From assembly GCA_027082975.1 (NCBI GenBank), contig JALWTH010000418.1, positions 1 through 33,050 of the forward strand: 33,050 nt of DNA, given 5' to 3'. The notes beneath the pieces were generated by a model. That model was not told the DNA's origin, ran no database searches, and saw nothing but the letters and a program-made list of their open reading frames with translations. Positions 11,584-13,440 of the stretch are shown here, piece after piece (positions within the stretch are counted from its first letter, which is position 1; the number at the start of each line of letters is the position of its first letter). Source of the stretch: Paracoccaceae bacterium. GTDB taxonomy: Bacteria > Pseudomonadota > Alphaproteobacteria > Rhodobacterales > Rhodobacteraceae. The translations under genes and the position numbers were made by a program.

Positions 11584-12729
11584 ATGGAACATGCAACCTC
11601 TTGCCTGCGCACAGGCCGGGACATGCCCGAGTGGGTATCGGAGGAGGTGCTCCTGTACCTGGACCATGTGGAGGGGGGGCAGTCGATCCGTGCCCTGGCC
11701 CGCAGGGCCGGGGTCCATGCGTCAACGATTCTGCGCAGGGTTCGCAAGACCGAATCCCGCCGCGACGACCCGCTGGTGGACCGCGCCCTCCTGCAACTGG
11801 GCGGGCTGATGCGCCGGCAGCGGGACGAAAGCGGCGCTCTACAGGAGACGCAGCCCGAGATGAGAGAGCTTCCCCAGGATGAAAAGACCCTGCACCGCGA
11901 TGCCAGCCGGATCCTGCGCGCATTGATGCTGGAAGGCGCGGTTCTGGCGGTGGTGCCGGAGGTGGAAACCGCGGTGGTGGTGGTCGAAAGCGCCGATGGC
12001 CGCCCACGCCAGGTGGCCGCCGTGGCGCGCCGCGTGGCCGAGGCCATGGCGCTTCAGGGCTGGATCGAGAAGGCACGCGAGGGGCGGGTGGTGCGCTACC
12101 GCATCTCGGCCGCCGGGCGGCGCAAGCTGCGCGAATTGCTGGCCGAGGCCGAAAGCGCCAATGCCGCGGCGATGGGCGACGACCGGGTGGCGGCCCATGC
12201 CGATGGCATACCCCGCAGCGCCGACCTCCACAGCCTGCACGCGGTTCGGCGCAAGCGGCGCCCGGCCGGTGCCGACAGCCCGCTGCAGGTGCTGGCCCGG
12301 CGGCGCGACAAGTCCGGCGCGCCCTATCTGTCGCCAGAGCTGCTGCGGGTGGCCGAGCGTCTGCGCACGGATTACGAACTGGCGCGCCTCGAAGGCCCGC
12401 TGGGCGAGGACTGGCAGTCGATCACCGGCGCCGAGGCCAGCGCTGTGGCGCAGGGCGGCGATACGGGAGGCAGAGATACGGGAGGCAGCGAAACGGGAGC
12501 CGGGGCGGCGACCGCCCGCCAGCGCCTGCACGCGGCACTGCGCTTTCTCGGCCCGGAGCTCGGCGACATGGCGCTGATGACCTGCTGCCTGCAACGGGGC
12601 ATGGAAGAGGCCGAGAAGCAGCTTCACATGCCGGCGCGGGCGGGCAAATATGTGCTTCGCATCGCGCTCAACATGTTGCTGCGCCATTATGGCAAGGCGG
12701 CGCAAGATGAGAACGATCTGATATACTAG
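11584..12729 (+). CDS. DUF6456-like DNA-binding protein (N-terminal HTH, central winged-helix-like segment, C-terminal conserved domain)
   Basis: HTH 'QSIRALARRAGVHASTILRRVRK'; C-terminal 'LGDMALMTCCLQRGMEEAEKQLHMPARAGKYVLRIALNMLLRHYG'; ATG at 11584 with upstream GAGGGGG. Confidence 0.78.
   Translation: MEHATSCLRTGRDMPEWVSEEVLLYLDHVEGGQSIRALARRAGVHASTILRRVRKTESRRDDPLVDRALLQLGGLMRRQRDESGALQETQPEMRELPQDEKTLHRDASRILRALMLEGAVLAVVPEVETAVVVVESADGRPRQVAAVARRVAEAMALQGWIEKAREGRVVRYRISAAGRRKLRELLAEAESANAAAMGDDRVAAHADGIPRSADLHSLHAVRRKRRPAGADSPLQVLARRRDKSGAPYLSPELLRVAERLRTDYELARLEGPLGEDWQSITGAEASAVAQGGDTGGRDTGGSETGAGAATARQRLHAALRFLGPELGDMALMTCCLQRGMEEAEKQLHMPARAGKYVLRIALNMLLRHYGKAAQDENDLIY
12460..12504 (+). 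repeat. 15-bp tandem repeat x3 in frame within the DUF6456-like gene
   Basis: GATACGGGAGGCAGA / GATACGGGAGGCAGC / GAAACGGGAGCCGGG, encoding DTGGR-DTGGS-ETGAG. Confidence 0.85.
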
Positions 12730-12994
12730 GCTCAGGACCCATCAATCCCGCGCTCACAGCGGTGCAGGCGCGAAATATCAGGGGTTTTTTGCCCGCCGGA
12801 CAGGGTGGGTCCCCTTTCCAAGGGCAAAAGGCCCCTGAGATGAAGCGCCTGCGCCGCCCGCAGGGCTCAGGCGGATTTGCTCCCTGACTGCGTTGCAAGA
12901 TCTTGAAATAGATTACTATTCCTGCGGTCTTGCGCCTGTTCAGGAAACAAATCCGCCGGACTGTGAGCGCGGGATTGATGGGTCCTGAGCCTAG
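12726..12994. mobile_element. MITE-like non-autonomous element with perfect terminal inverted repeats and CTAG (or TA) target duplication
   Basis: CTAGGCTCAGGACCCATCAATCCCGCGCTCACAG at 12726-12759 is the exact reverse complement of 12961-12994 (34/34 including CTAG); no substantial ORF inside. Confidence 0.75.
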
Positions 12995-13440
12995 AACTTC
13001 AGGATAACAGACAGAACAATCAGGATCATCAGCAGCGTGGGAACCTCGTTCATCAGCCTGTAGCTGCGGCCGGAACGCGAATTGCGCCCCTCGGCAAAGT
13101 CGAGCCGGCGCAGATACAGCCAGTAGTGCATCCAGGTCATGCCCAGGACCGACACCGCCTTGACCCAGGGCCAGAACATCCCCCAATCGACGATCCCGGG
13201 AGTAAAGACCATCACCAGCCCGAACAGCCAGGTCGAAATCATCGCCGGACGCATGATCAGCCTTTGAAGCTTCAGCTCCATCTTCTGAAAGAGAAGATCC
13301 GTTTCACTGCCTGTCTCGACTTCTTCCGCATGATAGACAAACAGACGTGGCAGATAGAAAAGCCCTGCCATCCATGACAGGACGGACATGATATGCAGGG
13401 CCTTTGCCCATGGATAAAACCAGGTCAGAAAATCAGCCAT
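12991..13440 (-). CDS. hemJ: Protoporphyrinogen oxidase HemJ (CopD-like, UPF0093)
   Basis: 'YPWAKALHIMSVLSWMAGLFYLPRLFVYHAE' and C-terminal 'YRLMNEVPTLLMILIVLSVILKF'. Confidence 0.93.
   Translation of the reverse strand: MADFLTWFYPWAKALHIMSVLSWMAGLFYLPRLFVYHAEEVETGSETDLLFQKMELKLQRLIMRPAMISTWLFGLVMVFTPGIVDWGMFWPWVKAVSVLGMTWMHYWLYLRRLDFAEGRNSRSGRSYRLMNEVPTLLMILIVLSVILKF

What the first reader, a model, noticed from the sequence alone, without database searches (positions are those of the whole stretch)
12726..12994. MITE-like element inserted exactly at the shared CTAG stop site of two convergent genes
Bases 12726-12759 and 12961-12994 are a perfect 34-bp inverted repeat: 30-bp TIRs (GCTCAGGACCCATCAATCCCGCGCTCACAG) each bounded by CTAG. 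The left CTAG supplies the TAG stop of the DUF6456-like gene; the right CTAG supplies the TAG stop of hemJ on the other strand. Collapsing the element to one CTAG gives ...ATATACTAGAACTTC..., in which both stop codons overlap in the same tetranucleotide, so the target duplication would have preserved both proteins unchanged. The interior has no meaningful ORF. A CTAG/YTAR or TA duplication is consistent with IS5-type (or IS630-type) mobilisation; that family attribution is inference.
Basis: partly seen in the sequence, partly recalled or inferred. Interest (0 to 1): 0.75.

Follow-up and report, generated by a model that had tools for sequence, protein, structure and literature searches.

The report
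Fold-back mini-transposon with interchangeable ends
It is a short mobile DNA element without a gene of its own, moved by the enzyme of another jumping element; related elements across the bacterial family Rhodobacteraceae, and probably more widely, keep the same folded core of about 263 letters while exchanging the outer ends that the moving enzyme should recognise.

Summary
The MITE reading is right; the headline (one insertion at a stop site shared by two convergent genes) probably is not. The element is 263 bp (12729-12991) with 31-bp perfect inverted repeats; the duplication is TA, not CTAG. About 40 copies and fragments lie in this genome. In a relative's genome similar ends bound an intact 847-bp IS5-family transposon resembling the IS427 group. 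Targets are YTAR in 61 of 64 insertions with TA on both sides. In relatives hemJ is followed by rho. Here rho lies on another contig that ends inside a copy of the element; the rho-side and hemJ-side flanks together rebuild the congener's empty site, with TA duplicated. So the DUF6456-element-hemJ join is most likely an assembly chimera through the repeat, or else a rearrangement. Insertions sit on stop codons because YTAR sites outside coding interiors often are stops (13 of 22 observed, about 9 expected). Unexpected: the interior (two hairpin arms) keeps its length and fold across Rhodobacteraceae genera (62 of 101 pairs with double compensatory changes), and a structure model also matches in other Alphaproteobacterial families. 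In one genome copies share 80-83% of the core but only 35-45% of the end sequence: a conserved core with swapped ends.

The parts
12727..12728 (.). left copy of the TA target duplication (within CTAG; TAG at 12727-12729 is the stop of the DUF6456 gene)
   Evidence: 22 of 30 own-genome copies with both ends have TA on both sides, and 42 of 43 copies compared in other genomes, IS included
12729..12991 (+). 263-bp non-autonomous element (MITE), arm A first
   Evidence: about 40 copies or fragments in the genome; same length in other genera
12729..12759 (+). left terminal inverted repeat, GGCTCAGGACCCATCAATCCCGCGCTCACAG
   Evidence: outer ~20 bp resemble the ends of IS5-family elements
12961..12991 (-). 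right terminal inverted repeat, perfect complement of the left
12760..12856 (+). hairpin arm A
   Evidence: columns 32-130 of alignment A1: helices 2-4, most pairs with compensatory changes
12857..12866 (+). small 3-bp hairpin between the arms
   Evidence: columns 131-140 of A1
12867..12960 (+). hairpin arm B with conserved apex CTTGAAATAG(N)CTATTCCTGCGG
   Evidence: columns 141-237 of A1: helices 6-8
12992..12993 (.). right copy of the TA duplication (CTA at 12991-12993 is the TAG stop of hemJ on the - strand)
12991..13440 (-). hemJ, the true host locus of the right flank; ancestral 3' neighbour is rho
   Evidence: relatives' order hemJ-rho; empty site in L189
11530..12729 (+). DUF6456 gene (start codon uncertain); its join to hemJ through the element is probably chimeric

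Best explanation
[quoted passage not shown] The transposase should recognise the outer ~20 bp of the ends, cut at GG...CC, and insert at the TA of a YTAR site, duplicating TA. The element begins with G, so an insertion into the TA of a TAG or TAA stop rebuilds TAG and leaves the protein unchanged. In a GC-rich genome YTAR is rare inside genes and common at stop codons, so tolerated insertions pile up on stops without any special targeting. The copy beside hemJ entered hemJ's stop, between hemJ and rho; the join to DUF6456 was made through the repeat, most likely by the assembler. Shown from sequence: copies, TA duplication, YTAR, ends shared with an intact IS in other genomes, empty site, fold. 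Inferred: which transposase acts, and the chimera. The two arms probably serve transposition at the DNA level (fold-back bringing the ends together); that last step is a guess, about 0.4.
For: About 40 copies or fragments in the own genome; target CTAG/CTAA/TTAG/TTAA in 21 of 22 own copies with TA on both sides and YTAR in 40 of 42 such copies in other genomes, IS included. G003 carries four equal IS5-type matches; the one read in full is 847 bp with ends GGGTCAGGACCCATTAATA / GGCTCAGGACTCATTGATT, TA duplication and two overlapping ORFs, plus MITEs with matching ends. The homologous two-ORF transposase in L120 matches DUF4096, DDE_Tnp_1 and NCBIfam transpos_IS5_3. Trap-captured IS427-group elements of Paracoccus are 832-865 bp with 2-bp duplications in most cases (PMC3281130). 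Empty site: G299 GAGTCAATCGCCTAGAATTTCAGG against own GAGTCAATTGCTTA|element|TAGAACTTCAGG. Stop-codon control: 30% of YTAR sites outside coding interiors are stops, 50% for CTAG; 13 of 22 insertions at stops against 8.9 expected.
Against: No transposase with matching ends was found in the own assembly; its two IS5 matches have different ends, so the mover may be lost, unassembled or foreign. Group assignment to IS427 rests on length, 2-bp duplication and ORF layout, not on ISfinder. No transposition was observed. The chimera cannot be proved without reads.
Confidence: 0.86

Rival explanations
1. Real genome rearrangement: the element first inserted between rho and hemJ, and recombination with another copy beside DUF6456 then swapped flanks, so the window is correct DNA.
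For: Many near-identical copies in both orientations are substrates for inversion; rho also sits next to a copy.
Against: Contig C252 ends 99 bp into an element part identical to the window's; C189 also ends with exactly 99 shared bp, the ends of C278 and C210 share exactly 127, and the C210 copy contains a 10-N gap: signs of graph or scaffold ambiguity at these repeats. It needs one more event than an assembly error.
Confidence: 0.22
2. One reading: one insertion into a CTAG shared by the stops of DUF6456 and hemJ.
For: Both stops do coincide in the contig; the DUF6456 end lies close to where its ortholog in G069 ends.
Against: hemJ is followed by rho in the congeners G299 and G298 and in other relatives whose 3' flank was read; own rho carries the missing flank on another contig.
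Confidence: 0.04
3. A stop-codon-targeting element: the transposase or a host factor prefers stop codons beyond its YTAR preference.
For: 25 of 87 flanks have a likely gene ending exactly at the junction TAG, only 5 run in elsewhere; 13 of 22 complete copies are at stops.
Against: YTAR preference plus loss of gene-breaking insertions already predicts 8.9 of 22; the excess is not significant at this sample size.
Confidence: 0.1
4. The arms are maintained at RNA level: transcribed from the upstream gene as a 3' structure that stabilises or shields the message and lowers the cost of insertion.
For: Elements often follow stop codons; strong fold; compensatory changes; the A-first strand folds slightly better in 19 of 24 members; MITE RNAs are RNase III substrates in Neisseria (PMC2229807).
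Against: The energy difference between strands is small (mean 5 of ~150 kcal/mol), and orientation of the distant members was chosen by an RNA model, which biases it; no terminator-like site; gene stops occur on either side of the element.
Confidence: 0.3
5. The compensatory changes reflect template-switch correction of long palindromes during replication, not selected function.
For: Long imperfect palindromes are known to be self-correcting (general knowledge).
Against: It does not explain the constant length of 262-266 bp and constant position of the arms across genera while the ends are exchanged.
Confidence: 0.25
6. Conserved terminator or structured RNA gene, not mobile.
For: Very stable fold.
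Against: Tens of copies with TA duplications at unrelated loci, an empty site, no terminator-like site, and no Rfam family at its gathering score.
Confidence: 0.01

Closest known systems
IS5-family insertion sequences of the IS427 group (e.g. Paracoccus ISPaes1, ISPbe2, ISPze1; PMC3281130)
   Same: Outer ends of the element resemble those of an 847-bp IS5-family element in a relative; 2-bp duplication; two overlapping transposase ORFs; DUF4096 plus DDE_Tnp_1
   Different: Element has no transposase; inverted repeat is 31-34 bp instead of 13-21; the two-arm interior does not resemble the IS
RUP of Streptococcus pneumoniae, ERIC/RU-1, Correia/NEMIS elements (PMC2229807, PMC2759123)
   Same: Short, intergenic, multicopy, TA at the ends, TA duplication, stem-loop fold, presumed trans mobilisation
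   Different: These are 107-168 bp; RUP depends on an IS630-type element; here the mover looks IS5-type and the core fold recurs with exchanged ends across genera
MITEPye1 of Paracoccus yeei (PMC11578231)
   Same: MITE in a Paracoccus (Rhodobacteraceae) genome that folds into long stem-loops
   Different: Ends match IS1182-family elements; 1-3 copies per chromosome
Caulobacter CIR repeats (PMC2229807)
   Same: Alphaproteobacterial intergenic repeat folding into two independent stem-loops
   Different: Described there as only partly MITE-like and without the enclosing 5'-3' end stem, which is present here

Membership tests
MITE (non-autonomous transposon) | short, terminal inverted repeats, no transposase gene | tested here: met
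   263 bp, 31-bp perfect TIRs, only mechanical ORFs
MITE (non-autonomous transposon) | many dispersed copies with target duplication | tested here: met
   about 40 copies or fragments; TA on both sides in 22 of 30 copies with both ends
MITE (non-autonomous transposon) | empty orthologous site | tested here: met
   hemJ-rho junction in G299 against own split flanks
MITE (non-autonomous transposon) | autonomous partner with the same ends | tested here: met
   IS5-family element in G003, also ends in G205; not found in the own assembly
MITE (non-autonomous transposon) | observed transposition in trans | not testable with these tools
   needs a trap-plasmid experiment
IS5 family, IS427 group (as the mover) | DDE transposase of IS5 type in two overlapping frames | tested here: met
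   DUF4096, DDE_Tnp_1, transpos_IS5_3 on L120; two overlapping ORFs in L143
IS5 family, IS427 group (as the mover) | length near 830-865 bp and 2-bp duplication | tested here: met
   847 bp, TA; group values from PMC3281130
IS5 family, IS427 group (as the mover) | placement in ISfinder by transposase phylogeny | not tested
   ISfinder not available
IS630 family (as the mover) | DDE_3 transposase present | tested here: not met
   no match in the own genome
Rfam RNA family | score above a curated gathering threshold | tested here: not met
   best hits far below threshold

The most novel reading that the evidence does not exclude
A long-lived lineage of non-autonomous elements whose fixed-length, double-hairpin core (about 263 bp) is conserved across Alphaproteobacteria and changes partners among IS5-type transposases by exchanging only its outer ~20-bp ends. 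The core itself would then be the replicating unit, supplying a transposase-independent function such as fold-back synapsis or insulation of the host gene.
Probability: 0.45. Interest if true: 0.75.

Novelty: new variant of a known kind. Interest (0 to 1): 0.58.

Why it matters
MITEs are usually explained as short-lived deletion derivatives of one IS. Here copies in the same genome share 80-93% of their core while their ends differ (35-45% identity in G222, 65-70% in G003), and length and fold persist between genera. That makes a testable case that the interior of a MITE is under selection and that MITEs can switch transposases. It also gives a plain account of why such elements sit on stop codons (YTAR plus a terminal G that rebuilds TAG), and a warning that such repeats create false gene neighbours in short-read assemblies.

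Tried and rejected
IS630 as mover: DDE_3 search empty in the own genome, although one copy (C365) has what reads like a decayed IS630-type fragment next to it (by eye). Terminator role: no terminator-like site. Rfam: nothing near threshold. Special stop-codon targeting: looked striking (25 of 87 flanks) but is mostly explained by YTAR sites outside genes. My CTAG row was counted twice; the true counts are coding 21, stop 8, intergenic 8, and those were used. The exact apex motif as a class-wide signal: found in no other genome of a 385-genome class sample, so distant membership rests on the covariance model and weak sequence-only support: core-only nhmmer E 1e-6 for G001, about 1e-3 to 0.02 for six other distant or end-swapped genomes, after preselection, none for G434, G526 or G415. 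RNA-strand polarity: weak and biased. Literature searches found no description of this family, but the library holds only open papers.

Full report
OBSERVATION. The perfect inverted repeat is real. The element is 12729-12991 (263 bp) with TA on both sides; 'CTAG' is C-TA-G of the target with G and C supplied by the element's ends. Folding as RNA or DNA is far beyond shuffles (RNA z -16.5, DNA z -14.9).

COPIES. The own genome holds about 40 copies or fragments at 78-100% identity, including forms with only arm A (C184), only arm B (C13, C333) and a 44-bp insert in the loop of arm B (C315, C54, C34, C396, C346). Of 30 copies with both ends, 22 have TA on both sides, with targets CTAG 9, CTAA 6, TTAG 4, TTAA 2, CTAC 1. 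In other genomes 42 of 43 copies compared have TA on both sides and 40 of those 42 are YTAR (the 43 include three IS copies).

MOVER. A TIR pattern search over 249 Rhodobacteraceae genomes found the outer end in 72, often as single ends rather than close pairs. L120 carries a two-ORF transposase with DUF4096, DDE_Tnp_1 and NCBIfam transpos_IS5_3. In G003 an intact copy is 847 bp with ends GGGTCAGGACCCATTAATA / GGCTCAGGACTCATTGATT, TA duplication and two overlapping ORFs, in the same genome as MITEs with similar ends. Trap-captured Paracoccus IS427-group elements have the same size and mostly a 2-bp duplication (PMC3281130). The own assembly has two IS5 transposase matches with different ends and no intact partner.

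THE WINDOW JOIN. Where the 3' flank of hemJ was read in relatives, congeners G299 and G298 included, rho follows hemJ (the rho ORF itself was read in G299). Own rho is on C252, and C252 ends 99 bp inside a copy of the element. Own rho side GAGTCAATTGCTTA plus window hemJ side TAGAACTTCAGG rebuild the congener's GAGTCAATCGCCTAGAATTTCAGG with TA duplicated. Thus the insertion at hemJ's stop is real and its other neighbour was rho. The window joins DUF6456 instead. The window copy shares 126 bp exactly with C148 and 99 with C252; contig ends C252 and C189 stop after exactly 99 shared bases, C278 and C210 overlap by exactly 127, and the C210 copy contains ten Ns. I judge assembly chimera about 3:1 over true rearrangement.

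STOP CODONS. 25 of 87 flanks have a likely gene ending exactly at the junction TAG. Control: in 382 kb of the own genome with a simple gene caller, YTAR sites outside coding interiors are stop codons in 25 of 84 cases, CTAG in 8 of 16 (after correcting a double count). Expected 8.9 of 22, observed 13. The placement is thus mainly a passive result of target choice and selection against gene damage.

THE CORE. A search with this copy found full-length relatives at 65-70% identity in other genera, 262-264 bp in most. Alignment of 12 copies (the window, one MAG, and ten copies from nine other genera) gives 101 pairs: a 31-bp end stem, arm A, a 3-bp hairpin, arm B; 62 pairs show changes on both sides; observed covariation exceeds all 500 shuffles and every slid version (relatedness inflates the first control). 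A covariance model matches 25 of 298 Rhodobacteraceae genomes and 10 of 289 genomes of the class, 8 of them in other families, mostly over the full model at 262-270 bp. Sequence-only support outside the family is weak, so homology there is probable, not proved.

SWAPPED ENDS. In G222 the outer 20 bp of two copies are 35-40% identical while the cores are 80% identical; a second pair gives 40-45% and 83%. In G003 ends are 65-70% and cores 91-93% identical; shuffled cores give 51%. TA flanks are kept in 42 of the 43 copies compared, so whichever transposase acts, the same target rule holds. How ends are exchanged is unknown; no IS with the alternative ends was found in the stretches held.

HOW IT LIKELY WORKS. 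Ends bind an IS5-type transposase supplied in trans; insertion at YTAR duplicates TA and rebuilds TAG. The arms are most likely a cis-acting fold-back helping different transposases pair the ends, or an RNA-level device that makes insertions harmless; the data do not decide.

VERDICT.

Noticed in passing
L102, L103, L092, L097, L099, L091 (own genome), also flanks of C52, C139, C220: A second short palindrome, GATTTTTC(T/G)GCGAAAAATCG, recurs near ends of the element at many own-genome loci; it looks like a separate repeat family (seen by eye in the output).
   Followed up: no
L088 1168-2256 (C13) and L144 1037-1945 (C149): IS5-type elements with ends GGTC(A/G)CATACCCATA sit directly against an end of this element family, sharing one CTA: nested or adjacent insertions at re-created YTAR sites. 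One end also abuts a remnant GGGCGTAGCCCCATAAAC.
   Followed up: partly
C148, C179, C54, C14 flanks: Two element ends lie back to back separated by 2 bp (GAGCC-CA-GGCTC or GAGCC-TA-GGCTC), consistent with repeated insertion at the flanking TA or with joined-end remnants; C146 and C396 have CA...TG instead of TA at both ends.
   Followed up: no
L102, L103, L092, L095, L096, L098, L100, L101, L104 (own genome): Many solo ends (about 30-45 bp of one terminal repeat, TA or CA outside) without a partner; how single ends arise is unexplained.
   Followed up: no
L104 about 1911-2170 (C218): A microsatellite of about 14 TTTTCCGG-like units follows a solo end.
   Followed up: no
L087 3960-4230 (JALTZY010000100.1): In another Rhodobacteraceae MAG a copy follows the TAG stop of an EamA-like gene; the convergent gene on the other side seems to read through into a TAA inside the terminal repeat.
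   Followed up: partly
L304 1501-1650 (G477): A 150-bp element in a 1.2-Mb alphaproteobacterial genome carries a single arm with TTGAAATATGAATAACTATTCCTGC, close to the arm B apex, inside unrelated inverted ends.
   Followed up: no
L288 1501-1557 and L291 1501-1549: Minimal elements of 49-57 bp: two facing terminal repeats with almost no interior, TA on both sides.
   Followed up: no
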